DNA from: Pseudomonas frederiksbergensis
GTDB lineage: Bacteria; Pseudomonadota; Gammaproteobacteria; Pseudomonadales; Pseudomonadaceae
Assembly: GCF_900105495.1 (NCBI RefSeq)
Contig: NZ_FNTF01000002.1
Location: forward strand, 3,898,501-3,962,500
DNA: 64,000 bases
Reading direction: 5' to 3'
This document shows positions 7,672 to 22,246 of the stretch, one piece after another. The notes under the pieces are model-generated. The model worked only from the letters and a program-made list of their open reading frames with translations. It was not told the origin of the DNA and made no database searches. Position numbers and translations under genes: made by a program. Numbering within the stretch: position 1 is the stretch's first letter; each line of letters begins with the position of its first letter.

Positions 7672-8697
7672 TCAATGAACGGGGTTGGTATTGTTCAGCC
7701 AAGCGAGCAGGGCCTGGTGGAATTGCGCCGGTTCTTCCATTTGCGGCGCGTGGCCCATGCCGGGGAATTCGACCAGCGTTGACCGGGGAATGAGTTTCGC
7801 CACCTGCTTGCCGAGGACGTCGTAGTGACCGAGTTTCGCCTTGACCTCGGGCGGTGCGATGTCGCTGCCGATGGCCGTGGTATCGGATGTACCGATCAGC
7901 AGCAGGGTCGGCATCTTCAGGTCCTTGAACTCGTAGTACACCGGTTGGGTGAAGATCATGTCGTAGATCAGCGCCGAATTCCACGCCACCTGCGTATGCC
8001 CCGGTCCTTTGTTCAACCCGGCGAGCATGTCTACCCAGCGATCGAATTCCGGCTTCCAGCGGCCGCCGTAATAGGTGTTGCGTTCATAGGTGCGGATGCC
8101 GTCGGCGGTGAGTTTCAGCTCGCGCTCATACCATTGATCGACCGTGCGATAGGGCACGCCGAGCGCTTTCCAGTCTTCCAGGCCGATGGGGTTGACCAGG
8201 GCCAGTTGTTCAACCTGATCGGGGTATTGCAGCGCATAGCGAGTGGCGAGCATGCCGCCGGTGGAGTGCCCGAGAACACTGGCCTTTTGAATGCCCAGGG
8301 CCTTGAGCAATTGCTGGGTGTTGGTCGCCAGTTGCTGGAAGCTGTACTGATAATGGTCGGGTTTGCTGGAGGTGCAGAAACCGATCTGGTCCGGGGCGAT
8401 GACCCGGTAACCGGCTTCACTCAGGGCCTTGATCGAACTGTCCCAGGTGGCACCGCAGAAGTTCTTGCCGTGCATCAGCACCACGCTGCGTCCGTTGGCC
8501 TTGCCGTTGGCGGCGACATCCATGTAACCCATTTGCAGGGATTTGCCCTGGGATTCAAAGGCGAAATGCTTGACCGTGTAGGGGTATTCGAAACCTTGCA
8601 GCTCCGGCCCGTATTCCGGGCCTTCGGCGTGGGCGATGACAGGCAATGCAGCGGTCAGTAGCAGGCTGGGCAGCCAGCGGAAAGGGGTGAGGGACAT
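7672..8697 (-). CDS. Exported alpha/beta hydrolase
   Basis: Serine hydrolase of 341 residues with an N-terminal signal peptide (about 1-24, cleavage after AHA). The oxyanion region is LMHGKNFCG (74-82), the nucleophile S145 is in GHSTGG, and H316 in GMGHAPQ completes the fold signature. The acid is likely the Asp in GTSDTT. The protein should act in the periplasm or outside the cell. GGAG is seven bases before the ATG. It is the first gene of an operon with a D-2-hydroxyacid dehydrogenase, which hints at hydrolysis of an ester followed by interconversion of a hydroxy acid. That pairing is inferred from position. Confidence 0.88.
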   Translation of the reverse strand: MSLTPFRWLPSLLLTAALPVIAHAEGPEYGPELQGFEYPYTVKHFAFESQGKSLQMGYMDVAANGKANGRSVVLMHGKNFCGATWDSSIKALSEAGYRVIAPDQIGFCTSSKPDHYQYSFQQLATNTQQLLKALGIQKASVLGHSTGGMLATRYALQYPDQVEQLALVNPIGLEDWKALGVPYRTVDQWYERELKLTADGIRTYERNTYYGGRWKPEFDRWVDMLAGLNKGPGHTQVAWNSALIYDMIFTQPVYYEFKDLKMPTLLLIGTSDTTAIGSDIAPPEVKAKLGHYDVLGKQVAKLIPRSTLVEFPGMGHAPQMEEPAQFHQALLAWLNNTNPVH

Positions 8698-8782
8698 GGG
8701 CGAGCTCCATTGGAAATCGGCCGATGCTGGATCGGCATGATTAGGGCGACATTAAACACAGGCAATCGCCGTGGCTAATCGT

Positions 8783-9217
8783 TCAACCCATCCAGCCCAC
8801 TGTGGCCATGGTCAACACACCATAACGGGCGCCTTTGGCGAGGGTCACGATCAGCAGGAATCGCCCCAGCGGCTCGCGCATCACGCCGGCCACCAAGGTC
8901 AGCGGATCACCGATCACAGGCACCCAGCTCAGCAGCAACGACCAATGACCGTAACGCTGATAATGCACCCGGGCTTTTTCCAGATGGCGCGGGCTGACGG
9001 GAAACCAGCGCCGATCATGAAACCGCTCGATACCGCGTCCCAGCCACCAGTTCACCAGCGACCCCAGGACATTGCCCAATGTCGCCACGGCGAGCAGCGA
9101 CCAGAGCCAATACTTGCCGCTGAGCAACAGCCCCACCAACACCGCTTCGGACTGCAAGGGCAGCAAGGTTGCCGCACCGAATGCGGCAAAGAACAGCCCG
9201 ATGTACGCACCGAACAT
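8783..9217 (-). CDS. YqaA/DedA-like small membrane protein
   Basis: Inner-membrane protein of 144 residues with about four hydrophobic segments and the SNARE-associated/DedA core (GNVLGSLVNWWLG, then SWVPVIGDPLTLVAG). It is shorter than DedA proper and matches the YqaA subfamily length. The ATG at 9217 overlaps the upstream gene's stop codon as TGATG. A TTG one codon earlier would also be possible, but the ATG fits coupling better. YqaA proteins have no settled function; the wider family includes lipid scramblases. Cotranscription with the DUF411 gene is likely. Confidence 0.85.
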   Translation of the reverse strand: MFGAYIGLFFAAFGAATLLPLQSEAVLVGLLLSGKYWLWSLLAVATLGNVLGSLVNWWLGRGIERFHDRRWFPVSPRHLEKARVHYQRYGHWSLLLSWVPVIGDPLTLVAGVMREPLGRFLLIVTLAKGARYGVLTMATVGWMG

Positions 9218-9663
9218 CAATGGGCCGGGTAGTCCGCCACCACCATGTCGGTGCCATCTTTCTTCAGGCCGATCACTTGATACGCATCACTCATGCCGTC
9301 CATTTCCATGCCGGGTGAACCCATGGGCATGCCGGGTGCGGCGACGCCCAGCAGATCGTCGCGCTTGCTCAAGGCCAGCACCTGATCGGCGGGGACATGA
9401 CCTTCAACGAATTTGCCGTTGATCAAAGCGGTATGACACGACGCCAGACGTGGAGGCACGCCGTGCTGTTGCTTGAATTCGCTCATATTGGCTTCGACGT
9501 GATCGTCGACTTTGAAGCCGTTGGCTTCCAGATGGCTGATCCATTTTTTGCAGCAACCGCAATTGGCATCGCGGTGAACCTCGATCGGGATCAGGTCGGC
9601 GGCCTGGGCCAGGGAGGAAATGAACAGGGCGCTCAGGGCGACCAGACGCAGGTGGGTTCGCAT
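9217..9663 (-). CDS. DUF411 periplasmic metal-binding protein
   Basis: Exported protein of 148 residues. The start gives a clear signal peptide (MRTHLRLVALSALF, cleavage after AQA). The mature part begins with the DUF411 signature HRDANCGCCKKW, carrying three closely spaced cysteines. A second conserved block, ASCHTALINGKFVEGHVP, and a methionine-rich tail (PGMPMGSPGMEM) follow. Cys, His and Met clusters of this kind suit soft metal binding such as copper, though the biochemistry is not established. It precedes a YqaA gene with which it shares a TGATG junction. Confidence 0.88.
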   Translation of the reverse strand: MRTHLRLVALSALFISSLAQAADLIPIEVHRDANCGCCKKWISHLEANGFKVDDHVEANMSEFKQQHGVPPRLASCHTALINGKFVEGHVPADQVLALSKRDDLLGVAAPGMPMGSPGMEMDGMSDAYQVIGLKKDGTDMVVADYPAH

Positions 9664-9975
9664 GGGGGATCTCGTCTCGAATAGCGGCCAAAAAATGCAT
9701 TTTGACCATTCTAACCAGTATCGAGGCAGGAGATTGTTTCGAAGTAATACGAGTTTCAGCCGCCGCACATTCTTTGTAGCAGCTGCCGAAGGCTGCGTCC
9801 GGCTGCGTAGCGTCGAAAAATCACACTCCCATTGGATAAGCCAATGAAACAGGGCGCTTTTCCGCTTGTATCGTAAATGTACGAGAATTGTAAAAAACCG
9901 GAATAAATAGTTGGTATGGCAAGTGGCCAGGCTGATACTCGCCCGCTCTTAACCAGATTAAACAAGGAGCTTTGT
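9664..9975. promoter_or_regulatory. Divergent intergenic region with a REP-like sequence
   Basis: This stretch holds the upstream regions of the DUF411 gene (minus) and the unknown gene at 10029 (plus). Around 9775-9815 is TAGCAGCTGCCGAAGGCTGCG, another Pseudomonas dispersed repeat type. It is followed by an AT-rich segment (about 9860-9960) that could hold the plus-strand promoter. AAGGAG at 9964-9969 is a strong ribosome binding site. Nothing else was recognised. Confidence 0.45.
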
Positions 9976-10032
9976 ATGGTCGCCTCACACGGATGTCTGT
10001 TTCAGATAGCGCAGTCGGGAGTTCGGTCATGA
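9976..10032 (+). CDS. Possible 18-codon leader ORF coupled to the next gene
   Basis: AAGGAG at 9964-9969 is six bases from the ATG at 9976, a textbook spacing. That ATG opens an 18-residue reading frame (MVASHGCLFQIAQSGVRS) ending TGA at 10030-10032. Its stop overlaps the ATG at 10029 of the unknown gene as ATGA. The strong ribosome site therefore serves this short frame rather than the main one. It may be a coupling leader. The alternative is a TTG (9972) or ATG (9993) start in the main frame. Confidence 0.4.
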   Translation: MVASHGCLFQIAQSGVRS

Positions 10033-10559
10033 CTATTGGCTATACCGGTGCCTGGACTTCCAAGGCAGGTTTGCTGGTCAAGGACACAGGCGCTGGCAAG
10101 CCTGTGACGCACAGCGCCAGGGTCAAGCAAATGCTGGCATTGGTGGGAAGCGATCCCAGTGCGCTCAACACGAAGTTGATGGATGAGCAGAAACTGCACA
10201 GAAACATCAAAGGCTTCGATCCGGAAAATGTCACCGCCAAACAACTGGGCAATCTCAGTGCGTTCTTGAAAGCCAAAGGACTGATTTCTGATATTACTTC
10301 AATGACCTTAATGAATGCCGGTGACAAGTTTGACCGGTTCGGAATACAGAAAGACCCGGATGCGAAATTCAATGCACTGGAGTATTTCGCCACTCAACTG
10401 GACACCATCCAGAACAACAGCATCAAGGGTGACAAGTACGCTGCGGGACTGATCCCGGAATACAAGAAAGCGATCTACGTACTGCAGAATTTACAAGCTT
10501 ATGGCAAGGGCAACGGCACATCAGTGCCTACCGACAAGGGCGTCAGCTCAAAGGCGTGA
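10029..10559 (+). CDS. Protein of unknown function (176 residues)
   Basis: I do not recognise this protein. From the ATG at 10029 it is 176 residues, without signal peptide or membrane segment. It is helix-prone, with Lys/Asp/Asn-rich stretches such as KQLGNLSAFLKAKGL and IPEYKKAIYVLQNLQAYG. The frame is also open upstream to a TTG at 9972 and an ATG at 9993, but neither is well spaced from the AAGGAG at 9964. The overlap ATGA with a short leader frame supports 10029. The soluble, small, low-cysteine composition would fit a secreted or effector-like protein, but nothing proves this. Confidence 0.75.
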   Translation: MTIGYTGAWTSKAGLLVKDTGAGKPVTHSARVKQMLALVGSDPSALNTKLMDEQKLHRNIKGFDPENVTAKQLGNLSAFLKAKGLISDITSMTLMNAGDKFDRFGIQKDPDAKFNALEYFATQLDTIQNNSIKGDKYAAGLIPEYKKAIYVLQNLQAYGKGNGTSVPTDKGVSSKA

Positions 10560-10567
10560 CGGTTTGT

Positions 10568-10599
10568 CCTGGCCCACTCAACTTGTCGAATGGGCCAGG
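10568..10599. terminator. Stem-loop between convergent genes
   Basis: CCTGGCCCA at 10568-10576 pairs perfectly with TGGGCCAGG at 10591-10599 around a 14-base loop. It lies between the stops of the unknown gene and the aldo/keto reductase gene. There is no good U-tract on either strand, so termination efficiency is uncertain. Confidence 0.45.
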
Positions 10600-10605
10600 T
10601 GTCGG

Positions 10606-11601
10606 TTACCGGTCAAGTAACTCCATGACTTCTTCCGGATAACGTAAACCCGCCGTGGCATTGGCCGGGAATATCGCTTCCAGTGCTTGCAAGTCTTCGC
10701 CGCTGAGCTTCACATCCAGCGCGGCCACATTTTCTTCCAGGTATTTACGCTGTTTGGTTCCGGGAATCGGGATAACGTAATCACCCTGAGCCAGCACCCA
10801 TGCGAGCGCGAGTTGGCCGGCAGTCACACCTTTGTCTGCGGCCAGGTCCTGCACTTGCCGCACCAACAACAGGTTTTTGGCGAAGTTTTCGCCTTGAAAA
10901 CGCGGGCTGAAACGCCGGTAGTCGTCTGCCGCGAAATCATCAGGGCTTTTCAGCGCTCCAGTGAGAAAGCCACGGCCCAAAGGGCTGTAAGGGACGAAGG
11001 CTATTCCCAGGCGCTGACACGCGGCCAGACAACCGTTTTCCTCCTGATCACGGCTCCATAACGAATATTCACTTTGCAGCGCACTGATCGGATGAACCTT
11101 GTGCGCGCGCTCAAGTGTTGCGACCGAGGCCTCGCTCAAACCCAGGTATCGAACCTTGCCGGCTTTCACCAGGTCGGCCATGGCACCGACGGTTTCCTCG
11201 ATGGCCACCTGCGGATCGATGCGGTGCTGGTAATACAAATCCAGAGTCTCGACACCGAGACGCTTGAGGGTGCCGTCGATAGCGGCGCGAATGTACTCCG
11301 GTCGGCCATTCACGCCCCGCGCAACCGGATTGGCCGGGTCGCGAACGATCCCGAATTTGCTGGCCAGAAACACCTGGTCTCGCTTGCCGACGATGGCTTT
11401 GCCGATCAGTTCTTCGTTGGTGTGCGGGCCGTACATGTCGGCGGTGTCGAGCAGGTTGATGCCCAATTCCAGCGCGCGATGCAGTGTGACCGTGGCTTCG
11501 CGGACGTCCACGCCAGTCGTGTAGAAATCGGTCATGCCCATGCAGCCCAGACCCATCGCGCTGACGAGTGGACCGTTTTTGCCCAGTTGACGTGTTTGCA
11601 T
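10606..11601 (-). CDS. Aldo/keto reductase (YajO/IolS-like)
   Basis: NADPH-dependent oxidoreductase with TIM-barrel fold, 331 residues. The start [10 protein letters not shown] is chosen because GGGAG lies just upstream and because this is the canonical family beginning; the longer open frame adds no family sequence. Catalytic features are D and Y in [15 protein letters not shown] in FLASKFG, and H in YYQHRIDP. The C-terminal cofactor region has [15 protein letters not shown]. It is divergent from a LysR gene at 11719, the usual arrangement for a regulator and its target. The substrate is unknown. Confidence 0.9.
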
Positions 11602-11718
11602 TGAAATCAGCTCCCTGTGAGTGAAGTCCATTGTTGATCTCGACAGAAACAAGATAAACCGGCTAAAACTGCTATCACTGTTCGTAATTTCTAAATAATC
11701 AGCCGGTAAGCAATAGCC

Positions 11719-12645
11719 ATGGACCGTTTTAATGCGATGCGCGTGTTCACTCGAATCGTCGAACTGGGCGGTTTTGCCAAAGCGGCGGATAGCCTGCAAT
11801 TGCCCCGTGCCTCCGTGACCATCCTGATCAAACAGTTGGAAGCGCATCTCGGTGTGCAACTGTTGCAACGCACGACGCGGCAGATCAGCCTGACGCTCGA
11901 CGGCGCGGCCTATTACCCTCGTTGCGTGCGGTTGCTGGCGGATCTGGAGGAAACCGAAGCGGTGTTCAGCACTGCACGCAATAACCCCAAGGGGCTGCTG
12001 CGCGTGGACATGCCGGCGGGCGTAGGGCGCTTGATAGTGATCCCGGCGTTACCGCAATTCACTGCTCGATATCCTTTGATCGAGCTGGAAATCGGCTTGA
12101 ATGACAGACCTGTCGACTTGATACGCGAAGGCGTCGATTGCGTGCTGCGGGGCGGCGACTCACTGGATGATTCACTGGTGGCGCGGCCGTTGGTCATGCT
12201 GGACCAGGTCACGTGTGCCAGCCCCGATTACTTGAAGCGATTCGGAACGCCTCAGTGTCTGGCTGACCTGGAAGGCCATCAGATGGTGGAGTACTTCTCC
12301 AGCAACAATGGCAAGCGTTATGGGCTGGAGTTCACGGTCAATGATCAGGTTCAGCTCATTGATTTGCCCAAGCAAGTTTCGGTCAACAGCGCCGATGGTT
12401 ACCTGGCCGCGTGCGAGGCGGGGTATGGTCTGGTCCAGGCCCCGTCTTACCACGTAGCGCGCCAGTTGAGCGAAGGCCGTTTATGTGAAGTCCTCAGTGC
12501 GGTGCCGACACCGGGCATGCCGCTGACCGCGCTTTACCCGCCACACCGCCAGTTGTCCCGGCGGGTGAGGGTGTTTGTCGACTGGCTGGTAGAGCTTTGC
12601 GCGCAGCCGGGCAATGACTTTTATCGAAAAGCCTCACGCGGCTGA
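11719..12645 (+). CDS. LysR-family transcriptional regulator
   Basis: Regulator of 308 residues, full family length. The N-terminal winged helix-turn-helix (about 1-60) reads [23 protein letters not shown], and the periplasmic-binding-like effector domain follows (90-295). The 117 bases between it and the divergent aldo/keto reductase gene should hold the shared operator. It most likely controls that reductase. Its last 12 bases overlap the end of the convergent GNAT gene. Confidence 0.9.
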
Positions 12646-13590
12646 GCGGGCTCTGTTCAGCGCTTCGGCGCTACTCTGCATGTTGGTGTTTTGCTGTAAA
12701 TCGTCATGCAAGCGTTGCATGTGCGGGCAATGCAGGTCGAGGTGTCGAGACTGCGCCCCTCGATGAAACAGTGCGAACCACCCCTGGGCACTGGAGGTAG
12801 GCGTCAGCCCGGTAAAGGTGAAACCAAGGGCCGCCAGATTGCGAACGTCCTGGGCAAAGTGCCGTGACAACTGAAGTTTGGCCGAGATCAGCCAGTGCCT
12901 GGGCAATTGCCGGACCTGCTCAAGCAGACGTTTGGTCAAACGCTGAATGACCATGTCGAATCTTTTATGGTGTTGCTTGAGTTGCAAGGGCAGGGAAGAC
13001 AACGGCGTCATGTCCGCATGAGTGCCGAACACAGCACACAAGTGCTGCATAAACCCTCGGCAGCTTTCAGGCCATGGGATATCGGGAAGTGGACGCGTTT
13101 GCCCTTCGACTACATGGCAACCCATCACGATGGTTTCCGGCAGCGGCTCGGCGAAGGGCGAAGGGACGTAGTCAGGTAGCAAACCCGTGCTGTGGAAGCC
13201 GATGCTTGCAGCCATGCGTTGCGTGTAGGGATGGTGTGTCACTTGTTTGATCGAGACGCTGTTGAACCCCATGGAACCTGATTGCGACAACAACTCCCGA
13301 CCCAGACGGGTCGCGATGCTCTGCCCCTGCGCGGCGGGATGTACCACGCTGAGGGCCAGTTCGGTGGTGTCCGCAGGTGTGTCATGACACAACGCGGCAT
13401 GCCCTAGAACGCGTACGTCGTCCACCGCCAGCATCGACTTCCAGCGTCCCTTGGCATTGTGCTGATCGATCATGTTCGGCAAATACACATCCGGCTGAAC
13501 GTAATGATCGCCATAGACCTCGCGAAACAACTGGCTTACGGCTCGTGCGTCGGAGGGGCGATAGGGGCGAAAAACCAAATGCGGCATCAT
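12634..13590 (-). CDS. GNAT-type acyltransferase with an extra C-terminal domain, last gene of the LuxC/LuxE-like operon
   Basis: Protein of 318 residues. Residues 1-160 form a GNAT fold with a recognisable acyl-CoA loop in LSVVHPAAQGQSIATRLG. Residues 160-318 do not match a domain I know and contain a basic segment and several His. The start ATG overlaps the stop of the upstream PaaK-like gene as ATGA, so translation is coupled. As the last gene of a set with three adenylating domains and a LuxC-like reductase, it may transfer an acyl group to the product or to a carrier. That role is inference only. Confidence 0.8.
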   Translation of the reverse strand: MMPHLVFRPYRPSDARAVSQLFREVYGDHYVQPDVYLPNMIDQHNAKGRWKSMLAVDDVRVLGHAALCHDTPADTTELALSVVHPAAQGQSIATRLGRELLSQSGSMGFNSVSIKQVTHHPYTQRMAASIGFHSTGLLPDYVPSPFAEPLPETIVMGCHVVEGQTRPLPDIPWPESCRGFMQHLCAVFGTHADMTPLSSLPLQLKQHHKRFDMVIQRLTKRLLEQVRQLPRHWLISAKLQLSRHFAQDVRNLAALGFTFTGLTPTSSAQGWFALFHRGAQSRHLDLHCPHMQRLHDDLQQNTNMQSSAEALNRARSAA

Positions 13591-14876
13591 GCGGGCTCCG
13601 ACAATGGTGCGTCATACACGCGCAGGTCCTGGACCCGCAATTGTTTGCCGGAGCGTGGGTGAAGCTTCAATGCGGTGACTGCACAAGACAACACTCGCAA
13701 TTCCAGCAGACCCTCGCGGCTCAACTCCTCGATGGCGGGATAGTGTTCAACCAACGCCTCGTACAACGCTCGGCACACCGGTACGGTGGCCATCGATAGC
13801 GTTGAGGGAACCCACTTCACACTCAAAATATCTTTGTATCCGTCATGTTCGATCAACAATTGCCATTGGTCGTTGTGGGCAATGCGCTGGACGATCTGCT
13901 GGATGTCGTCGATCAGCAGCGACAGCACGCCGACGCGCACTCGCTGGCTGTGCACGCTACGTCCCTTGAGGGCGAATTTGCGATTTGGGGCTGAGCCGGG
14001 CTCGCGCCAGCACGCGCGGTCGCCCACTGGATAACGCAGCAGTGGCATGAGCCGGCGGGTCAGACTAGTCACCACCAACAATCCGGTGCGATCGCATTCT
14101 TCGATGACTTCGCCGGTGAGTTCATCGATGATCTCCAGCAAGGTTTGTGGTTCAAACACCCGATGCTCGCCCAAGGCGCAGTCACGAGCGCTGGCCCCGA
14201 TAAGGCCGGCATCTACGCTGGCATAGCCAATGGACGCGATGCGCACGTTGGGAAATACGTCGGTGAGGATTGCTACCTGCTGGGCAAACAGGCTTTCGCC
14301 GCCATACAACAACGTCTCAACCCCGCGCAGTACTCGCCGATGCTGGTTCAGGTAGGCAGCGAATCGCAGCAGCTGTGCCGGGACGCCGACCAGCACGTTG
14401 ATCCGATGCTGATCAATCGCATCGGCCAGTGCGCCCAGCTCCGCGTGTCCAGTAAACGGAAACTCGCAGATCGATCGCCTGACGTGTACCAGGGAGTCGT
14501 GGATGAACAGAAAGCTGGCATAGAGATCTCCGGAAAAGAATAGATTGGCGACACGGTCTCCGTCATTCAGTTGTGAGGAGAAGCTTTCTCCAAATGTACT
14601 GACCAGTTCTTGCCATTCGCTATAGGTGTAAACGGACAGTTTGCCCTGGCTGGTCGATCCGCCGGTTTGAAACACCAACGCATCGTCGACCTTTGCGGTC
14701 AGGACCGGCCAATGATTCAAGTCATGGCTGTCAGACCAATAGTCCACAGCGTTGGTCAGCGGTATATCTTGCAACTTAATGCCCTGCGACGGTAAGTGTT
14801 CCAGTTGCTGGCGGTAGAAGTTTGAATGTTGTCGTATATAAGACAGCAGTTGTTCGAGTGAATAAGTCGATTTCAC
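13587..14876 (-). CDS. PaaK/LuxE-like adenylate-forming protein
   Basis: Member of the adenylate-forming superfamily, phenylacetate-CoA ligase/CoF synthetase branch, 429 residues. The phosphate-binding loop FQTGGSTSQGK is at 69-79, and YASVDAG (217-223) and RYPVGD (280-285) correspond to the later core motifs. The start is a GTG at 14876 with AGAGAG upstream; no better ATG is in frame. There are 68 bases between it and the fusion gene, and a 4-base overlap with the GNAT gene downstream. Such proteins activate a carboxylate as acyl-AMP and pass it to CoA, a carrier or a protein cysteine. Which acceptor is used here cannot be seen. Confidence 0.85.
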   Translation of the reverse strand: MKSTYSLEQLLSYIRQHSNFYRQQLEHLPSQGIKLQDIPLTNAVDYWSDSHDLNHWPVLTAKVDDALVFQTGGSTSQGKLSVYTYSEWQELVSTFGESFSSQLNDGDRVANLFFSGDLYASFLFIHDSLVHVRRSICEFPFTGHAELGALADAIDQHRINVLVGVPAQLLRFAAYLNQHRRVLRGVETLLYGGESLFAQQVAILTDVFPNVRIASIGYASVDAGLIGASARDCALGEHRVFEPQTLLEIIDELTGEVIEECDRTGLLVVTSLTRRLMPLLRYPVGDRACWREPGSAPNRKFALKGRSVHSQRVRVGVLSLLIDDIQQIVQRIAHNDQWQLLIEHDGYKDILSVKWVPSTLSMATVPVCRALYEALVEHYPAIEELSREGLLELRVLSCAVTALKLHPRSGKQLRVQDLRVYDAPLSEPA

Positions 14877-14944
14877 TGGATTCTCTCTTTTCTATCAGGC
14901 GTCTAGACAGTCGGAAAACAAGTTGTGAGTAGTTCTCGGTATTT

Positions 14945-17347
14945 TTATTTTCTTTTATCAATAACCAACGGTGTTTTGCCGCTGTGTTTATTCCGAGTGA
15001 ATGCTTGTTCCTTGCATGTTTGAACTTCAACAATTAACAGGTTGGCGTTCACGGCGTTTACCAGCGCTTGATCGTTCAATAAGGCGTGGCGGACCTGATC
15101 GGCGTCTGCATTCGACAAAACTGTCAGCCGCTCGACGCCATCAGGGCTGTGATCGAGAACTATCTGCATGGGCACGCCGACGCTATCGTGCAGAGCCGAC
15201 GGCGAAATGAATTCCGTGCCCATTCGCACCAGTTTGCCGTGGCGCTGGAGCAGTTCGAATCGGGGTGAGTCCAGCCCGCACGGACAGGCTCCGGGCATCC
15301 AGCGACCGGTGTCACCCACGTCATATCGGCGCACGGTCTGGCCTTGTCGTGCTCGTGAAGTAAACAGCAGGCGACCGACCTCATTAGCCTGAACCGGTTC
15401 ATCCTGTTCGATCTGCACGATTTCCAGATGCTGGGTATCGCACATCAAGTGAAACACCCCGTTCGCGGTGGCTGCGCACGCATGCCCCAAAGGACCGGCG
15501 TCGACGGAACCATAGATCGCCGAGCGGATCATCGAAACCCCGCAACTTTCCATGAGGCTCAGGCTGGTTTGGCCCGGGTGCTCGCCGCCGAGGAACACTT
15601 TGCTGATACCTGCGTACGCGCGAAGTCGGGCCTGCTCGCTGAAGAACAGACGATGCAAGGTGCTCGGCATGCCGATCAGCACGGTGACACGCTGGTCAAC
15701 GATCAGTTGGGCGATTTCGCTGAAGTCATCGTCCTGGGGCGCCCCCATGGGGAAATGTGTGACGCCCATCTGCTCCAGTATTTTGGTAAAGCTGAGGAAC
15801 CCCCCGTACAGGCTGCCGCCGTAAAACAGGTTCATGACCCGGTCCTGTGCAGGATCGAGGCCGGCGGCGAACAGGCCGTCTGCCGCTGCGCGCATCTGTC
15901 GTTGAAAGTCGCGATAGCTGAAGCCGGCGAGGGCGGGAGTGCCGCTGCTCCCTCCCGAGCGGAAATACAATTGCGCTGCGGCGCCCATCGGTTGGGTCGT
16001 GAAGGCGTTTTTGTCCATGATCGGCGCATCGGCAATGTCAGGGGCCGGTGGGACCGGGTCGAGCGTCGCCCGGCCCGGCAAAACATCCGCCGACAGGCTC
16101 ACCGAGAGGCGGCGACTCAAACGCGTCAACGCGTAAACGCCATCATGCGGCTCACCGGCGTAGCCATCATGAATCCCCGGGCAAGGCGCAATACGGGTGA
16201 CGCCAGCGTTGACCAGTGTTCGCACAAGTCCTGGCGTTTCTGTCGCAGAGCAAATCAGTGCGCAGCTTTGCAGGACCGTGCGCCAGGGCAAGAGCGTCTC
16301 GGCGATCAAGTGTTGCGGCACAGGCTTGAGTAGCAGCGTACGAAACAGTGGCGATGGCGCGAGCGTCTGATGGTGTTCCCAGATGATCCGCCATCCATGG
16401 CCGGCCCAGACCTGGCCGCGTTGGTTCGCAAAACAGTAATCCAGTTGCGCCATGGCCGTGCGGGTGGTGATTTCGCACGCCTCCTGGTCCGTGGGTACCA
16501 GCGCCGGCCAGCGCGAGGCACGGCGCGTGAAGGCTTCGCTCAAACGCTCGCCCAGGTCTTGCAGAATGGCCGGATCATTGCTGTCCACCAGCACCCATTG
16601 CGGGCTGGAACACGCTTGTTGATCCAGGCTGCACACTTCATCCACCAACGCATCCAGCGCCGAAGGGCTGGCCGCGTCAGGCGACAGATAAGCGAAACTG
16701 ATCCTGTGCCCCCAATCGATCCAGCGACATCCGGCGGGGATCTGCTGACGAATCGCCGTGAGTGCCTTTTCACCGCCCCAGGCTGACACGCCATCGGCCT
16801 GAGTGCAGAGTTCGGCTATCAGGGAAGTGCCCACGGGCAGTACCGCGACGAACTCGGCAAGCCTGCCGCTGGTGTCGCACTTCACAAATTCAGCCAACAA
16901 CTTTGCAGTCAAACCCGCATCGCTGGTGCTGGGGCGTAACCAGTTGATGTTACCGGCCAGCAGGCTTTCAAGAACCGCGCAGAACGCCAGCATCGGCGCA
17001 TTGCCCGGCGTCACATGCACCACCAGTCCCAAGGGGTGCCAGCTTTCAAAGTGTGGCTGCCGGTAGTCGATACGTCTCAGCGAGCGGGGTTGCGAACCCA
17101 GTTCTCGCTCAAGCTTTGTGCTCAGGTTGCTGCGCTGGCAGAACTCGCTCAGCCCCTGACATTGATCGTCGTCCAGAGGCAGGTTCAGGCTGCGAGTCTG
17201 TAACTGCGCGGCGAAACGAGCCGCGGCTTCGATGACGGTTTCGCTGTCGATCGGTGCAGAAAGCAGCCCGGGCAATTGTTTTCGAAGGCTGTCGAGGGCG
17301 CTTTGCGGGGTAACGTCGTCACGCAGTTGGCCATTGATCAGGTACAT
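14945..17347 (-). CDS. LuxC-like acyl reductase fused to an adenylate-forming domain
   Basis: An 800-residue two-domain protein. Residues about 1-425 are LuxC-like (aldehyde dehydrogenase fold, fatty acyl reductase): HPLGLVVHVTPGNAPML (104-120) is the nucleotide-binding loop and C246 in LDQQACSSPQ is at the position of the LuxC acyl-accepting cysteine. Residues about 445-800 are a PaaK/LuxE-like adenylating domain with SGGSSGTP (464-471), YGSVDAG (612-618) and RYDVGD (674-679). In luminous bacteria LuxC and LuxE are separate proteins of one complex, so the fusion makes sense biochemically: activate an acid, reduce it to the aldehyde with NADPH. The ATG at 17347 is one base after the LuxE-like stop, with GGAGGGG upstream. 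The frame continues upstream without family sequence. Confidence 0.88.
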   Translation of the reverse strand: MYLINGQLRDDVTPQSALDSLRKQLPGLLSAPIDSETVIEAAARFAAQLQTRSLNLPLDDDQCQGLSEFCQRSNLSTKLERELGSQPRSLRRIDYRQPHFESWHPLGLVVHVTPGNAPMLAFCAVLESLLAGNINWLRPSTSDAGLTAKLLAEFVKCDTSGRLAEFVAVLPVGTSLIAELCTQADGVSAWGGEKALTAIRQQIPAGCRWIDWGHRISFAYLSPDAASPSALDALVDEVCSLDQQACSSPQWVLVDSNDPAILQDLGERLSEAFTRRASRWPALVPTDQEACEITTRTAMAQLDYCFANQRGQVWAGHGWRIIWEHHQTLAPSPLFRTLLLKPVPQHLIAETLLPWRTVLQSCALICSATETPGLVRTLVNAGVTRIAPCPGIHDGYAGEPHDGVYALTRLSRRLSVSLSADVLPGRATLDPVPPAPDIADAPIMDKNAFTTQPMGAAAQLYFRSGGSSGTPALAGFSYRDFQRQMRAAADGLFAAGLDPAQDRVMNLFYGGSLYGGFLSFTKILEQMGVTHFPMGAPQDDDFSEIAQLIVDQRVTVLIGMPSTLHRLFFSEQARLRAYAGISKVFLGGEHPGQTSLSLMESCGVSMIRSAIYGSVDAGPLGHACAATANGVFHLMCDTQHLEIVQIEQDEPVQANEVGRLLFTSRARQGQTVRRYDVGDTGRWMPGACPCGLDSPRFELLQRHGKLVRMGTEFISPSALHDSVGVPMQIVLDHSPDGVERLTVLSNADADQVRHALLNDQALVNAVNANLLIVEVQTCKEQAFTRNKHSGKTPLVIDKRK

Positions 17348-17348
17348 A

Positions 17349-18479
17349 TCAAGCCCCTCCCAGCAATTCGGAAGCCGCCATCGCGCAACTGCGACTGGCG
17401 GTGGTGCCGGCACGCCCGTGCAGCTCGAACCAATCGGTGCTCAGGCCGCATCCGCAACTGGCGCCGGGGTGTAATGTCGCCAGGTCGCCCATGACCACCG
17501 CGTGAGCAGGGCTTGACGAAATGTACGGGGAGACGAATTCCAGCAAGCCGCGCTGGCCGTATGGCTGGACCGTGAAATCGGATGGGTTGCGCACGAAAAC
17601 CTTCGAATAAACGGGGGCATGAAAATGATGACGGGCACACTGGATATAGGGCACGGCATGCTCGACGGCTCCGTAACCATCGCGACAGCGGGACAGGTCG
17701 ACACCCAATTGCCGATTGATTCGGGCATACAACTCAAGCAATGGAATTTCTTGTGCTGCCTGGGTTTTCCAGCCTCCCCCCAAAAACACCAATGACTGAG
17801 CTGGAAGCTCGAGATTGGGTGCGCCGGTGTCTTCCATGTGCTGTAGCGCATGGGAAAGAAACGCAGGAAATCCAAGAATTCGCACGGGCAAGCCCTCGTC
17901 GGCAAACTCCTGCAAGGCGCGAATCACGCCAAACAGGTCGAACTCGTGACCTTTAGCCGTCCGGCGTAATCCGTAGACGAGCCGATTGACGGGCGCATAG
18001 CTGCACAGAAACTGGTCGGTGTAAGCAGTGCCCAAGGTGATGGCAGCCTCGGGCTCGTAGCTCAGGAGCAAATAATTGCAGGGGCTGTGCGGCGTATCCC
18101 AGCCGTAGTGCCGGAAAATGTGGCTCACCATCCCTTGAGCCGCCGCCATGCTGCGAGAGTCATAGCGCATGCGACTTTTCTGGCCGCTGGTGCCGGATGA
18201 GGTCAGCTCCAGCGCGCCTTCGCCGGTAGGGCCGAACAACAGGTGACGTTTGAAATAGTTGGCGAAAATCGGTGGCAATCTGGACCAGTCATCCAGTGTT
18301 TCGAGATCTTGGGCATCGAGCCCGTTGGCGTTCAGCCAGCGTTCGTAGCCAGGCGTGTGGTGACAATGAAACAAGCTGATTTCCCCCATCGCCTGATCGA
18401 ACAGGCCCTCAGGGACGGAATCCAGGCAATAGGGTTGCGTTAACGCGCAAAGCGCATCGGTGTGGGGTAAGTGGATCAT
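17349..18479 (-). CDS. LuxE-like acyl-protein synthetase
   Basis: Protein of 376 residues matching the length of LuxE. The adenylating loop SSGTSGQKS is at 94-102. A conserved glycine-rich segment FLGGGWKT lies mid-protein. A cysteine at 365 in ASRSCAMAA lies where LuxE carries its acylated residue near the C-terminus. In the lux system LuxE forms acyl-AMP, acylates this cysteine and hands the acyl group to LuxC. The gene lies directly upstream of the LuxC-like fusion (one base between stop and start) and 21 bases after the exporter gene. No luciferase genes are in the window, so light is not the expected output. Confidence 0.87.
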   Translation of the reverse strand: MIHLPHTDALCALTQPYCLDSVPEGLFDQAMGEISLFHCHHTPGYERWLNANGLDAQDLETLDDWSRLPPIFANYFKRHLLFGPTGEGALELTSSGTSGQKSRMRYDSRSMAAAQGMVSHIFRHYGWDTPHSPCNYLLLSYEPEAAITLGTAYTDQFLCSYAPVNRLVYGLRRTAKGHEFDLFGVIRALQEFADEGLPVRILGFPAFLSHALQHMEDTGAPNLELPAQSLVFLGGGWKTQAAQEIPLLELYARINRQLGVDLSRCRDGYGAVEHAVPYIQCARHHFHAPVYSKVFVRNPSDFTVQPYGQRGLLEFVSPYISSSPAHAVVMGDLATLHPGASCGCGLSTDWFELHGRAGTTASRSCAMAASELLGGA

Positions 18480-18500
18480 CAGAAGACCTGCTGTGGGGTG

Positions 18501-19742
18501 TCAGACGGCAAGCGGGATTTGAGAGCGCCGCAGAAACAGGCGCAGGGGCGCCAGGCTCAGCAGCCCAGCGATACCCGCCATCAAAGCGAAGGATTCGTGG
18601 CTGTCACCGGCACCGATGGCCGCAATAAGCGAGCCGCCGCCACCCATGACGGCGATCGAGATCATGCCGATCATGGCCGAGACCAGACCTTTGCTGTCAT
18701 CGCTGGCGAACAGCGCAAGCCGGTACAACGCGGCATTGCTCATGCCCAGTCCCACGGCGTACAGCGCCAGGCAACTGATCAGCACGACGGTCGAACCGCC
18801 ATGGATGCTGACGGCGACTAACGCGATGAGGCCGCCGCAAAACGGCCAAAGCGCGTATCGAATCAGTTGTGGCAGTTCAACGTTGGCAATCAGTCGATTG
18901 AGGATCAGATTGCCGAGAATGACGGCTGTAAATACCGGGATTTGCCACAGGCCGTAGTGCAGCGTTGATAACCCCTGGTTGTGGATCAGCAAGAGCGGCG
19001 CCAAGCCGATCCAGGCAATCAACGGCAGGCTCATCACGCCGAGCGCGACAGCGGCGCACAGGAATCGCGGGTTAGTCAGCAACGCCGCATAGCGGCGCAG
19101 GGTGCCGTGCCATTCAAAGCGTACTGCTTCCAGTCGCTGTCCGTCGTGGCGCAGGGTGCCCACGGTTTCCGGCATGAACAGATAAAGCCCGAGCCAGACC
19201 ATCACGCCGCCGATACCCAGCAGTAAAAACAGCTCCCGCCAGGACAACCATTCCAGCAGCAGACTGCCGAGCAACGGCCCCAGCAGCGGGGAGAGCAACG
19301 CAACGTTCCCCAACAGCGCCATGATCTTGACCGCGTCGGCTTCGCAGAAAACTTCTTGCAGGGCCGGGTAGCTGACCGCGATGACAAACCCCAACCCCAT
19401 GCCCTGAATCAGTCGCAAGCCATTGAACGCGGAAATGCTTTGCACCTTGAACGCGGCGGCGCAGGCCAGGGCGAATACCGCACAACCGATAAGCAACATC
19501 CGGCGGCGGCCGAAATGATCGGACAGCGGGCCAATAAGCCATTGCAGAAGAATGCCGCCGGCCAAATAAAGATTGAAGGCGTAAGGGACATGGTCGGGAC
19601 TGGCATCCAATTGATGGGTAACGGTCAACATGCCCGGCATGATCATATCGCTGGCCATATAGGTCAGCAGTTCGAAAAAAGTGATTGCAAGGCAAAAGCC
19701 CAATAGATGTCGGGAGCTGATATTGATTAAAGGCTTGTGCAT
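18501..19742 (-). CDS. MdfA-like MFS exporter, first gene of the LuxC/LuxE-like operon
   Basis: Twelve-helix major facilitator of 413 residues. YMASDMIMPGM at 28-38 is the MdfA/Cmr signature, and E24 and D32 reproduce the spacing of the two key acidic residues of MdfA (E26, D34). Motif A is GPLSDHFGRR at 71-80. Such proteins export hydrophobic or cationic compounds against protons. As the first gene of a tightly packed biosynthetic-looking operon, it more likely exports the operon product or confers self-protection than acts as a general drug pump. The ATG has only a weak upstream AGAG. Confidence 0.87.
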   Translation of the reverse strand: MHKPLINISSRHLLGFCLAITFFELLTYMASDMIMPGMLTVTHQLDASPDHVPYAFNLYLAGGILLQWLIGPLSDHFGRRRMLLIGCAVFALACAAAFKVQSISAFNGLRLIQGMGLGFVIAVSYPALQEVFCEADAVKIMALLGNVALLSPLLGPLLGSLLLEWLSWRELFLLLGIGGVMVWLGLYLFMPETVGTLRHDGQRLEAVRFEWHGTLRRYAALLTNPRFLCAAVALGVMSLPLIAWIGLAPLLLIHNQGLSTLHYGLWQIPVFTAVILGNLILNRLIANVELPQLIRYALWPFCGGLIALVAVSIHGGSTVVLISCLALYAVGLGMSNAALYRLALFASDDSKGLVSAMIGMISIAVMGGGGSLIAAIGAGDSHESFALMAGIAGLLSLAPLRLFLRRSQIPLAV

Positions 19743-19991
19743 GGCGTCTCTTTTTTGCGCGAAGTTTAATATCGGGTCTTTTGCAACGCGCCGAGATTAA
19801 TCACGGAACATGAATAGCTCCAATGAACTATTGAAACTCAAGGTTTCGATAGTTTTCGCTATGTTTCGATATTCCATTGATAGGAATAGGTAAATATGCC
19901 CGTACGAAAAATACTCGCGACAGGGCGGGCATTTATTTAGCAGTTATCGGATTGGGTATTTAGCTTACGAATGAAGGTTCAAATATCCACG
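19743..19991. promoter_or_regulatory. AT-rich control region of the LuxC/LuxE-like operon
   Basis: This 249-base region is visibly richer in A and T than its surroundings and precedes the five-gene operon. It contains three copies of a 9-base element, GTTTCGATA at 19843, TTTTCGCTA at 19853 and GTTTCGATA at 19863, each starting ten bases after the previous one. No regulator gene is adjacent. The promoter is expected between the repeats and the ATG at 19742, but no convincing -10/-35 pair was chosen. Confidence 0.5.
19843..19871. repeat. Three helically phased 9-bp direct repeats
   Basis: GTTTCGATA, TTTTCGCTA and GTTTCGATA start at 19843, 19853 and 19863. The outer copies are identical and the middle one differs at two positions. 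Ten-base spacing places all three on the same face of the helix, as expected for cooperative binding of a regulator. They lie about 100-130 bases upstream of the exporter start, compatible with an activator site. Confidence 0.5.
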
Positions 19992-20132
19992 TTATCGATG
20001 CTGGTAATACCCCGGCCCACCACGGTCGTAATGGTGATCGCCGTGGGGGAAAACGATGCAGCTGCTCAGGGCCAGGAGAGCGAGCAGGGGGAATCGGCAG
20101 TGCGATTCGACGGAACATTTCAAAATCCTCAC
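19992..20132 (-). CDS. Small lipoprotein, probably frameshifted
   Basis: The frame from a GTG at 20132 encodes 46 residues with a hydrophobic segment ending LALSSC, a lipobox, followed by a short His/Asp/Gly/Tyr-rich tail. However, the good ribosome site (GTGAGG) is spaced for an ATG at 20118, which opens MFRRIALPIP in another frame. The two frames join perfectly if one base is removed from the five-base C run (G on the plus strand, 20087-20091), giving MFRRIALPIPLLALLALSSC. Either the GTG start is used, or the gene carries an indel in a homopolymer. Confidence 0.55.
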   Translation of the reverse strand: MRILKCSVESHCRFPLLALLALSSCIVFPHGDHHYDRGGPGYYQHR

Positions 20133-20267
20133 GGGGCAATAAAGCCAAATCCAGTGATCGGCTGTAACATGAGACCCCGTTTTGTAGTGTCCTATCATCG
20201 GAGAAAGGTAGGGCTTGGCACGCGCTCTGATACAAATCGGATAATTTTTCAGGTTCAGGAACTCGCA

Positions 20268-20456
20268 ATGACTCAGTCGCAACGTTTGAAATACTCGATT
20301 CTGATCTCGCTCGTGGTGTTGGGGATCATGTTCGGACTTTCGTATCTGCAAAACGCAGGTGTCATCAGCGAGAAGCTGTTTCAGTACATCGCCATCGGCG
20401 TGGCGGTGATCGTGGTGGTGGTCAATGGCGTGATGCGCCGCAAGGTCAAACCCTGA
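20268..20456 (+). CDS. Small two-helix membrane protein
   Basis: Protein of 62 residues with two hydrophobic helices (about 9-25 and 38-55) joined by a short polar loop and a basic tail (RRKVKP). This predicts an inner-membrane hairpin with the tail inside. The start at 20268 is preceded by CAGGAACTCGC, a weak AGGA site. The upstream part of the open frame has no protein-like character. Small conserved membrane proteins of this kind are common in Pseudomonas; no function is known to me. It converges on the Fur-like gene, 19 bases away. Confidence 0.75.
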   Translation: MTQSQRLKYSILISLVVLGIMFGLSYLQNAGVISEKLFQYIAIGVAVIVVVVNGVMRRKVKP

Positions 20457-20475
20457 ACGACGCATCTTGCGCGGA

Positions 20476-20847
20476 TCACTCGCGATGAAGAATGGCTGCA
20501 GCGTGCGGATGCAGGCTGTAGCTTTTGTCCGGATTGAGCGTGATCACGCCTTCGCTGCACAAGCGTTTCAACACTTCCCGCACACTGAGAAAGGACAGGG
20601 GAATACCCAGCTCCAGCAAGTGGCTGTGCACGCCGCGCACGCCGAGGCTACGGTCGCTTTCGGCGGCAGTCAGCAAGGCGTCGATGACTTTGAGGCGGAT
20701 CAGGCTGGTTCGCAGGCCAAAGCTCTTGAGCAGCAACCTGATCCGCTCGTTGCCATTGCGCTCAATGCGTTGACCAAAAACACCGGAGCCCATGGCGGAG
20801 CCCTTTGGCGCACTGCTACCGTCCGTTGGCAGTTGCGAGTTGTACAT
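20476..20847 (-). CDS. Fur-like winged-helix regulator lacking the metal-binding domain
   Basis: Protein of 123 residues. Residues about 35-105 resemble the N-terminal winged helix of the Fur family: an R/L-rich first helix (SLIRLKVIDALLTA), GVHSHLLELGIPLSFLSVREVLKRLCSEG as helix-turn-helix, then a wing with VITL. The C-terminal Fur dimerisation domain with its HxH and metal ligands is absent; the protein ends soon after with HPHAAAILH. GGAG lies upstream of the chosen ATG. It may bind DNA without metal control. The name Fur-like is based on fold-level resemblance only. Confidence 0.65.
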   Translation of the reverse strand: MYNSQLPTDGSSAPKGSAMGSGVFGQRIERNGNERIRLLLKSFGLRTSLIRLKVIDALLTAAESDRSLGVRGVHSHLLELGIPLSFLSVREVLKRLCSEGVITLNPDKSYSLHPHAAAILHRE

Positions 20848-21146
20848 GCAAAAACTCCTTTTTCGAGCCGGCCAGGAAATGTGATGGGTGCTCTCATTCA
20901 ATAAGACGTACGAGCGGGGCAAATAATGAAGCCCCGAATGTAGAAATTTTGTCGCCATCACGTCAGCGCCCCGTGAGATGCCTGTGAAAAGCGCTTTCAT
21001 GGCCTAAATTTTTTGTCAGCGGTACTCGATATTTGCAGGTTCGTGACCTTCGATGACTAAGGGCCACCAGAAAGGTGGCCGCACAGTAACGCTGAAGTTG
21101 CTGGAGCGAGAAAAAGCAGGCCGCACCCCGCAAAAGGGGGCGGCCT
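20848..21146. other. Intergenic region between fecR and the Fur-like gene
   Basis: This 299-base stretch contains two stem-loops: GGCCACC/GGTGGCC at 21062-21080 and the fecR terminator next to 21119-21146. The remainder (20848-21060) should hold the promoter of the Fur-like gene. No gene, RNA or operator could be recognised in it. Confidence 0.4.
21112..21146 (-). terminator. Intrinsic terminator after fecR
   Basis: Directly after the fecR stop the minus strand reads AGGCCGC-CCCC-TTTTG-CGGGG-TGCGGCCT and then GCTTTTT. The stem is GC-rich with a small bulge and the U-run is good. On the plus strand the same stem is also followed by a T-run, so it may act in both directions. Confidence 0.75.
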
Positions 21147-22148
21147 TCAGCTTTTTGGGGGGTGTTGCGCAAGGGAGTTGAGGACCGGATTGCCATCCTT
21201 GTTGCGGGTCAGGTAGACCGGCAATACCTTGGGCAGGGAAGCCACCAGGTTGTCGAGCTCCTTGATGTTGTAGATGCCGCCGATGCGAATCGAGCCGGTA
21301 CTGCTGTCGGCCACCATCACCGGTTTGCTCAAGTAGCGATTGATCAATGGCAATGCATCGGTCAACGCCAGATCATCGAGCACCAGTTTTCCGCTGCGCC
21401 AGGCCAGTGAGTTGTCATTGTCGTAGGTCTGACTGATCCGCGGAGTGAAGTCGCCGCGTCTATAGCTCGCCTGCATTGCTGGTTCGAGGCGCAAACCGTC
21501 ACCCGCAACGGCGTCGTTACTGCTCACCAGCACCGAACCTTCTATCAGGTTCACGCGTACCTGATCTTCATACATCCAGACGTTGAATCTGGTTCCGGTT
21601 ACCCGAATCCTGCCTTCGGCCGCTTTGACAATGAAGGGGTGTTCAGTGTCATGGCTGACGTTGAAGAAGGCTTCGCCTTTTTTCAGCGTGATCCGACGTT
21701 GATCCTTGTAGTTGCTGAACGTCAGCTCACTGCCCAGGTTCAGTTCCACCTGACTGCCATCGCTCAGGGTGACCTGGCGGACATTGTCGTTCGCTTCGAA
21801 ATGTTGATAGGAATTGGGCAGCCAGCCCAGGTTCCAGCCGCTATAGGCCGCCAGCGGCAACGCCACGGCACAAACCGCGGCGGCGATACCGAAGGTGCGC
21901 CAAGGCGTTGCAGGTTTGGCGCGGACCATCGGGACTACGGTGGCTGGACGGGGCAGGTCCCCCGCGACATCCCAGATCTCCAGCATCGCCTCGTACTCGA
22001 ACGCGTGAAGCGGATGAGCGTCATGCCATTGCTCGAATGCCAGCCGCTCTTCAGCGGTGCAATCGTTGGCGTGCAGACGCATGCACCAATGCGCAGCGGC
22101 ATCGGTGATTGCGTCATATTGGGCTTGCGAGAGTGAGTTATCGGTCAT
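21147..22148 (-). CDS. FecR-family anti-sigma regulator without adjacent fecI
   Basis: Protein of 333 residues. The cytoplasmic N-terminal part has the DUF4880 feature AAHWCMRL and WHDAHPLHAFEYE (1-60). A single membrane helix covers about 87-105. The periplasmic FecR domain is at about 125-220 (VTLSDGSQVELN, TGTRFNVW) and a C-terminal STN-like region at about 255-325. FecR proteins transmit signals from a TonB receptor to an ECF sigma factor. Here neither a sigma factor gene nor a signalling receptor is adjacent: the upstream neighbour is the large toxin-like gene. The partner must be elsewhere, or the protein has lost its usual role. Confidence 0.9.
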   Translation of the reverse strand: MTDNSLSQAQYDAITDAAAHWCMRLHANDCTAEERLAFEQWHDAHPLHAFEYEAMLEIWDVAGDLPRPATVVPMVRAKPATPWRTFGIAAAVCAVALPLAAYSGWNLGWLPNSYQHFEANDNVRQVTLSDGSQVELNLGSELTFSNYKDQRRITLKKGEAFFNVSHDTEHPFIVKAAEGRIRVTGTRFNVWMYEDQVRVNLIEGSVLVSSNDAVAGDGLRLEPAMQASYRRGDFTPRISQTYDNDNSLAWRSGKLVLDDLALTDALPLINRYLSKPVMVADSSTGSIRIGGIYNIKELDNLVASLPKVLPVYLTRNKDGNPVLNSLAQHPPKS

Positions 22149-22246
22149 TGACCCATCCTGATTTCCCGCATTCTAACCTTGAGGGGAAGTCTGCGAGAAC
22201 AACCGTCATGGCAATTGCCCAGCAAATCGGTCGTTATTTTTCTGAT

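What the first reader, a model, noticed from the sequence alone, without database searches (positions are those of the whole stretch)
12634..19742. Luciferase-free LuxC/LuxE-like operon with three adenylating domains, a GNAT protein and an exporter
Five minus-strand genes are packed with gaps of 21, 1 and 68 bases and one 4-base overlap. They encode an MdfA-like exporter, a LuxE-like synthetase, a LuxC-like reductase fused to an adenylating domain, a further PaaK/LuxE-like protein and a GNAT protein. In lux systems LuxE activates an acid and LuxC reduces it to an aldehyde. Here luciferase (luxAB) and the LuxD transferase are missing, activation domains are multiplied, and an exporter leads the operon. 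The set looks like a dedicated pathway that makes and exports a reduced acyl compound, perhaps a signal or an antimicrobial. I know of no described system with this exact composition. The product is inference.
Basis: partly seen in the sequence, partly recalled or inferred. Interest (0 to 1): 0.8.

Follow-up and report, generated by a model that had tools for sequence, protein, structure and literature searches.

The report
A leupeptin-type protease-inhibitor operon in Pseudomonas
The five genes are a Pseudomonas version of a known bacterial gene set that builds leupeptin-like peptide aldehydes (protease inhibitors), so the arrangement is real and probably works, but it is a new member of a described kind rather than a new system.

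Summary
In detail: five tightly packed minus-strand genes with the stated gaps. Its novelty claim is not. Exporter, LuxE-like ligase, LuxC::PaaK fusion, PaaK-like ligase and GNAT protein are the leupeptin operon (transporter + leupABCD) described in Klebsiella, Photorhabdus and Xenorhabdus. In the K. michiganensis relative of this operon the two published leupA/leupB primers match exactly, 1,235 bp apart, the published amplicon size. Window proteins are 63/55/51/34% identical to K. michiganensis LeupA/B/C/D; K. michiganensis and X. bovienii differ about as much (68/53/53/43%). Catalytic residues are kept in 50 of 50 aligned rows. In 79 of 80 fetched named loci the four biosynthetic genes occur together in one order. 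In Pseudomonas the operon is a 7.3-kb present/absent cassette, at one site in 31 of 34 carriers. Best reading: N-acylation, two ATP-driven ligations without an NRPS, reduction by the LuxE/LuxC pair to a peptide aldehyde, export. The exact Pseudomonas product is unproven; its genes form a clade beside the known producers, so an analogue is possible.

The parts
18501..19742 (-). MdfA-like MFS exporter, first gene of the operon; relative of the transporter beside leupABCD in Klebsiella
   Evidence: MFS_1; MdfA subfamily 340 bits, below cut-off 439; 50% identical to the MFS gene directly upstream of leupA in K. michiganensis L047
17349..18479 (-). leupA homologue: LuxE-like acyl-protein synthetase; putative thioester cysteine C365, E273 of the YGxVEH motif
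   Evidence: 63% to K. michiganensis LeupA; aligned to the LuxE chain of 7xc6; C365 and E273 in 50 of 50 rows
14945..17347 (-). leupB homologue: LuxC-type acyl-thioester reductase domain (C246) fused to a PaaK-like adenylating domain (K791)
   Evidence: 55% to K. michiganensis LeupB; C246, D616, K791 in 50 of 50 rows
13587..14876 (-). leupC homologue: stand-alone PaaK-like ATP-dependent ligase (K411)
   Evidence: 51% to K. michiganensis LeupC; K411 in 50 of 50 rows
12634..13590 (-). leupD homologue: GNAT N-acyltransferase with a C-terminal half of unassigned fold
   Evidence: GNAT match on residues 20-132 for the best family; 34% to K. michiganensis LeupD; conserved columns listed
12649..19991 (.). 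present/absent cassette: stretch missing from empty sites in leup-less Pseudomonas; holds the five genes (the last codons of leupD overlap the flank) and 249 bases upstream of the exporter
   Evidence: flanking homology ends at 12648 and resumes at 19992 with 9 bases between in L184; 12645/19991 with 6 bases in L186; 12625/19990 with 25 bases in L188; 3 of 10 leup-less loci show the join this sharply, the other 7 do not

Best explanation
The locus is a leup operon: a non-NRPS pathway that makes and exports a leupeptin-type N-acyl peptide aldehyde, a protease inhibitor. Proposed steps: LeupD (GNAT) acylates a free amino acid (leucine in leupeptin); the two PaaK-like domains (LeupC and the C-terminal half of LeupB) adenylate carboxyl groups and form the two amide bonds; LeupA (LuxE-like) adenylates the peptide acid and takes it over on C365 as a thioester; the LuxC domain of LeupB (C246) reduces it with NAD(P)H to the aldehyde; the MFS protein exports it. 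Shown here: the genes, their orthology to leupABCD, conserved order and catalytic residues, and the present/absent cassette. Taken from papers (passages): leupeptin from the leup operon in K. oxytoca, a leupeptin-derived pyrazinone from the Photorhabdus luminescens leup cluster, and leupeptin in Xenorhabdus bovienii by separate AMP-dependent ligases and a reductase. Inferred: which ligase makes which bond, the residues used in Pseudomonas, and the export role.
For: Published primers leupA_f and leupB_r match K. michiganensis L047 with 0 mismatches, from 6924 (+) to 8158 (-), 1,235 bp, the published amplicon length. They fall in the LuxE-like and LuxC::PaaK genes of the relative of this operon. 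The published leupABCD span of 5,831 bp with a transporter beside it fits L047, where the LuxE ORF starts at 6863, GNAT ends at 12699 and the MFS gene lies directly upstream. Window to K. michiganensis 63/55/51/34% for A/B/C/D; K. michiganensis to X. bovienii 68/53/53/43% (these rows are other strains of the producing species than those in the papers). A-B-C-D in one order and on one strand in 79 of 80 loci examined. Catalytic residues in 50 of 50 rows. A paper states that leupeptin in X. bovienii SS-2004 comes from a non-NRPS pathway with separate AMP-dependent ligases and a reductase (PMC11212599 passage).
Against: No product has been shown for any Pseudomonas strain in what I could read. 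The 17 Pseudomonas rows of this type form a clade outside the branch (SH-aLRT 83) that joins the known producers, so the product is not bracketed by the tree. LeupD is only 34% identical to the Klebsiella protein. LeupA differs in the FPAFL stretch: SH in the window and P. lini, WQ in P. koreensis, WF in 10 of the 15 rows printed. The primary paper (Li et al. 2020) was not held, so the roles of single enzymes rest on citing passages and inference.
Confidence: 0.9

Rival explanations
1. Same pathway, different product: the Pseudomonas clade makes a peptide aldehyde with other residues or another N-acyl cap than leupeptin, or its real end product is a pyrazinone formed after cleavage, used as a signal. 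(This overlaps with the best explanation, so the two confidences do not add up to one.)
For: Own clade in the LeupB tree; LeupD, which would set the cap, is the most divergent of the four (34%); local LeupA differences. Known leup systems already vary: a lysine analogue in Klebsiella and a homoarginine form of the pyrazinone from Xenorhabdus and Photorhabdus; pyrazinone 3 changes iron-acquisition gene expression in K. oxytoca (PMC11480411 passages).
Against: At the positions I used as rough pocket markers the window resembles K. michiganensis: LeupA 5 of 5 and LeupC 5 of 5 identical, LeupB 3 of 5 identical with F/L and I/L exchanges. The mapping is by motif from recalled GrsA positions and is approximate.
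Confidence: 0.3
2. A lux-like fatty-acid reductase route giving a long-chain aldehyde or alcohol, without luciferase.
For: LuxC and LuxE Pfam families; both cysteines align with the LuxC/LuxE chains of 7xc6 or fall within their last aligned residues.
Against: The NCBIfam LuxC and LuxE equivalog models score 57 and 46.5 bits against cut-offs of 750 and 550; two further ligase domains and a GNAT gene travel along in 79 of 80 loci; primers and orthology identify the leup family.
Confidence: 0.03
3. A decayed or silent remnant without a product.
For: Relatives show damaged copies: leupB and leupC shortened in L070, leupA split in L099, transporter broken in L045 and truncated in the two Salmonella plasmids, leupD split in L026 and L040. 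Leupeptin production is undetectable in K. oxytoca under usual culture (PMC11480411 passage).
Against: All five window ORFs are full length and the ligases and reductase keep the catalytic residues; the close relative L066 keeps all five genes at 96-99% identity.
Confidence: 0.05

Closest known systems
leupABCD + transporter, leupeptin cluster of Klebsiella michiganensis/oxytoca (PMC8283571, PMC11480411 passages; Li et al. 2020 not read)
   Same: Same four biosynthetic genes in the same order with an MFS gene directly upstream; 63/55/51/34% identity; same catalytic residues; the paper also reports a conserved insertion position
   Different: The winged-helix-like neighbour ORF of the Pseudomonas site has no match in L047; LeupD divergent; no product shown in Pseudomonas; elicited by sialic acid in Klebsiella, regulation unknown here
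leup operon of Photorhabdus and Xenorhabdus
   Same: Same A-B-C-D genes in the same order; LeupA 64% and LeupB 53-54% identical to X. bovienii and Ph. khanii
   Different: No gene matching the window's MFS protein in the fetched flanks of 26 of 26 Xenorhabdus/Photorhabdus loci; a few flanks are short (L059, L092)
Leup-like clusters on Streptomyces linear plasmids (S. cattleya pSCAT, Streptomyces sp. BHT-5-2, NBC_00158)
   Same: LuxE, LuxC::PaaK and PaaK genes; in NBC_00158 also MFS and GNAT in one run
   Different: Order differs (PaaK, MFS, GNAT, LuxE, LuxC::PaaK in NBC_00158); LeupB about 38-42% identical; no product known to me
lux operon (LuxC, LuxE) of luminous bacteria
   Same: LuxE-to-LuxC thioester handover logic (recalled), catalytic cysteines
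   Different: No luxAB and no luxD among the five genes; extra ligase domains and GNAT; far below the LuxC/LuxE equivalog cut-offs

Membership tests
leup (leupeptin) operon | Four genes leupA-D in this order on one strand | tested here: met
leup (leupeptin) operon | Orthology to the genes that published leupA/leupB primers identify | tested here: met
   Primers placed exactly in K. michiganensis L047, 1,235 bp apart; window genes are full-length relatives of those genes
leup (leupeptin) operon | Transporter next to leupA | tested here: met
   MFS 50% identical to the L047 gene; PMC8283571 names an adjacent transporter
leup (leupeptin) operon | Intact catalytic residues in reductase and ligases | tested here: met
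   50 of 50 rows (the shortened locus L070 was not among the rows); residue roles are recalled, alignment to LuxC/LuxE; no catalytic-residue test was made for LeupD
leup (leupeptin) operon | Production of leupeptin | not testable with these tools
   Needs LC-MS; sequence does not fix the residues
lux operon | luxA, luxB (luciferase) and luxD beside luxC/luxE | tested here: not met
   The five genes carry no such domain
lux operon | LuxC/LuxE equivalog scores | tested here: not met
   57 vs 750 and 46.5 vs 550 bits
NRPS-type peptide aldehyde clusters (antipain, flavopeptin) | NRPS modules with condensation and carrier domains | tested here: not met
   No such domains in the five proteins
Anti-phage defence | Match to a PADLOC model | tested here: not met
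   0 families for 5 proteins at E 0.001

The most novel reading that the evidence does not exclude
The Pseudomonas leup clade makes a peptide aldehyde other than leupeptin (other residues or N-cap), tuned to proteases of plant- or soil-associated targets, or uses the derived pyrazinone as a signal. That would make this a widespread, unexplored family of protease inhibitors in environmental Pseudomonas.
Probability: 0.3. Interest if true: 0.5.

Novelty: new member of a known kind. Interest (0 to 1): 0.3.

Why it matters
It places a known protease-inhibitor pathway in about a quarter of the sampled genomes of the window's genus (34 of 149, the window's own included), in 31 of these 34 at one chromosomal site. 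Eight held papers cite the leupeptin work. I searched five of them by keyword (PMC11480411, PMC8283571, PMC11212599, PMC10548850, PMC9177418), only the first two with the word Pseudomonas; the passages shown name no Pseudomonas leup operon, and PMC8283571 does not contain the word. Three (PMC10028735, PMC10676414, PMC8965314) I did not open, and the original paper was not readable. These strains could be tested for small-molecule inhibition of host or competitor proteases, and the clade gives natural variants with which to study how stand-alone ligases and a LuxE/LuxC pair make peptide aldehydes without an NRPS.

Tried and rejected
Iron or siderophore link: I first took the roughly 795-aa gene beside the site in relatives for a TonB receptor and the small regulator-like ORF for a Fur relative. 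Pfam shows a penicillin amidase (1.9e-136) and no family above cut-off for the ORF, and both also occur at the site where the operon is absent, so I dropped the idea. Site neighbours as parts of the system: rejected, because the winged-helix-like ORF occurs in 126 of 149 genomes (E up to 0.001, weak matches included) and LeupB in 34 of 149 (E up to 1e-100). Recent foreign origin by composition: cassette GC 58.0% against 58.8% in the rest of the window, so no support. Regulatory RNA: no Rfam match in 7000-22500 at the gathering thresholds. Promoters and terminators in 12300-20700: 2 and 8 found, against 3.8 and 9.2 in shuffles. Early literature searches for LuxC/LuxE clusters in Pseudomonas and passages of one paper gave nothing of use. 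Structure of LeupD: not obtained.
Full report
What is there. The fusion gene most likely starts at ATG 17347, not at the listed GTG 17413: homologues align from there and a GGGAGGGG stretch precedes it. Domains: MFS, LuxE, LuxC plus an adenylating domain, AMP-binding, GNAT. The C-terminal half of the fusion and the next protein match solved PaaK-type ligases by sequence; the LuxC and LuxE parts match the LuxC-LuxE complex 7xc6.

Relatives. A search of the fusion protein found 1333 proteins at E 0.001 or better among the 8000 candidates scored; of the 120 listed, those for which a source named an organism were Pseudomonas. In 57 related genomes the fusion was found full length in 9, the window's own genome included. 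The eight others hold all five genes in the same order, with leupD split into two ORFs in one of them (L026). Beyond Pseudomonas, tblastn (E up to 1e-15) covered at least 80% of the fusion in 6 of 8 matching plasmid records: two Salmonella, two records of S. cattleya, two other Streptomyces. In Salmonella L039 the order LuxE, fusion, PaaK, GNAT is the same, after a truncated transporter. In Streptomyces sp. NBC_00158 PaaK, MFS, GNAT, LuxE and the fusion lie in one run. An even sample of 398 genomes of the phylum gave 7 with any match at E up to 1e-15 and two with a full-length fusion, one of them the window's own.

Identification. This pattern recalled the leupeptin operon, so I tested it. PMC8283571 (passages) gives leupABCD of K. 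michiganensis CAV1374 as nt 315,353-321,183 with an adjacent transporter, and primers leupA_f and leupB_r with a 1,235-bp product. A scan of named genomes with alignment A1 kept the best 80 of 391 confirmed stretches, among them K. michiganensis DSM 25444 (L047). Both primers match L047 exactly, at 6924 (+) and 8139-8158 (-): 1,235 bp. They fall in the LuxE-like and LuxC::PaaK genes, and the LuxE-to-GNAT span in L047 (6863-12699, 5,837 bases counting from the first start codon) agrees with the published 5,831 bp. So leupA is the LuxE-like gene and leupB the fusion, and by order leupC is the PaaK-like gene and leupD the GNAT gene, with the MFS gene upstream. The window proteins are 63, 55, 51 and 34% identical to K. 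michiganensis LeupA-D; K. michiganensis and X. bovienii are 68, 53, 53 and 43% identical. These rows are other strains than those used in the papers.

Co-conservation. Of the 80 named loci (selected by the fusion protein, so this asks only what travels with it), 79 hold A, B and C over at least 80% of the window protein's length and a GNAT match; all 79 have the same order and strand. The exception, L070 (Rosenbergiella), has shortened B and C. In L099 leupA is split in two, though its longer piece passes the 80% limit. A full MFS gene lies in 49 of 80 (directly upstream of leupA in 48, and 318 bases from the longer leupA piece in L099), a broken one in 1 (L045), none in 30: 26 of 26 Xenorhabdus/Photorhabdus loci, and L049, L050, L070 and L101. 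'None' means no match to the window's MFS protein within the fetched flank; a few flanks are short.

Working parts. In the aligned set of 50 rows (window, 45 of the 80 named loci chosen by hand for breadth and without L070, 4 plasmid loci) the LeupA residues S94, E273, D332, R356 and C365, LeupB C246, G465, D616, P619, D679 and K791, and LeupC G72, D222, D286 and K411 are invariant. That these are nucleophiles, adenylation motifs and the A10 lysine is general knowledge of LuxC/LuxE and ANL enzymes, recalled; the two cysteines fall within the alignments to LuxC and LuxE. The positions that I called pocket markers were placed by motif from recalled GrsA numbering and are only a rough guide. LeupD could not be modelled; its C-terminal half has no family match.

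History. In the LeupB tree (quick method, SH-aLRT support only, rooted on Streptomyces) 17 Pseudomonas rows, the window among them, form one clade (99), sister to a branch (83) that holds the enterobacteria and one betaproteobacterium on one side and Xenorhabdus, Photorhabdus and six betaproteobacteria on the other. Two other Pseudomonas (RIT623, UFMG81) sit with Pantoea, so the operon has probably moved between genera. In 149 genomes of the window's genus 34 carry LeupB, the window's own included; reading the two lists together, in 31 of these 34 it lies within a few kilobases of the winged-helix-like ORF and in 3 (G518, G524, G540) elsewhere. Ten leup-less genomes, picked from those with strong matches to that ORF, all keep it and the neighbouring 62-aa ORF, with other genes of the site. 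In three of the ten the break is sharp: flanking homology ends at window 12648 (L184), 12645 (L186) and 12625 (L188) and resumes at 19992, 19991 and 19990, with 9, 6 and 25 bases between. In L192 both flanks align, less sharply; in the other six the LysR-side flank does not align, so there the join cannot be read. The operon is thus a 7.3-kb cassette present or absent at this place; whether by gain or loss is not settled. Its GC content is ordinary, so I see no sign of recent arrival.

How it works. Passages report that leup genes give leupeptin and a lysine analogue in K. oxytoca, and pyrazinones after cleavage (PMC11480411), and that X. bovienii SS-2004 makes leupeptin by separate AMP-dependent ligases and a reductase without an NRPS (PMC11212599). 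PMC10548850 (passages) contrasts this route with NRPS-made peptide aldehydes of Streptomyces, among which it lists leupeptin. From these and the domains I infer: acylation by LeupD, two ligations by LeupC and the LeupB C-terminal domain, activation and thioester capture by LeupA, reduction by the LeupB LuxC domain, and export by the MFS protein. The division of labour between the ligases is inferred. Li et al. 2020 itself was not held.

Verdict. It is a leup operon in Pseudomonas: a new member of a known kind. Searches that could have shown a Pseudomonas leup operon in print (30 of 184 papers listed, 30 of 215 listed, 8 of 8, 1 of 1) gave none in the listings and passages that I saw, but most of those papers were not opened and the original paper may name it. 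The open point is the exact product.

Noticed in passing
L041, L042, L043 (Streptomyces linear plasmids): Leup-like clusters (LuxE, LuxC::PaaK, PaaK; in L043 also MFS, GNAT and a downstream kinase-like gene) occur in Streptomyces, where PMC10548850 (passages) lists leupeptin and its kin as NRPS products. They may be a non-NRPS source of such compounds in actinomycetes.
   Followed up: partly
L039, L040 (Salmonella enterica IncF plasmids): leup clusters on plasmids typed as conjugative; the transporter is truncated in both and leupD is split in L040.
   Followed up: partly
L050, L101 and genomes G518, G524, G540: Signs of a second Pseudomonas leup lineage. L050 and L101 nest with Pantoea in the tree and have no match to the window's MFS gene nearby; G518, G524 and G540 (56-57% identical LeupB) carry it away from the usual site, and I did not place them in the tree.
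   Followed up: partly
window 20848-21146; L021:13045-15432: Many relatives carry a penicillin amidase gene between the winged-helix-like ORF and FecR; the window has only 299 bases there, though its genome has two other family members elsewhere.
   Followed up: partly
window 22247-27235 (-): A 1662-aa protein with ToxA_N (dermonecrotic toxin N-terminal) domains beside FecR; related ORFs, whole or cut by the locus end, lie next to the site in several other Pseudomonas (34-97% identity over the aligned parts).
   Followed up: partly
window 20268-20456 (+): A 62-aa ORF that looks like a small membrane protein, conserved at the site in 8 of 8 leup-bearing unnamed loci, 10 of 10 leup-less loci and 35 of 80 named loci. 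No family search was run on it.
   Followed up: partly
L060 (Burkholderia multivorans WS-FJ9), L102, L110 (Chromobacterium), L053, L055 (Rugamonas), L054 (Iodobacter), L048 (Parachitinimonas): leup operons with an adjacent MFS gene also occur in betaproteobacteria.
   Followed up: partly
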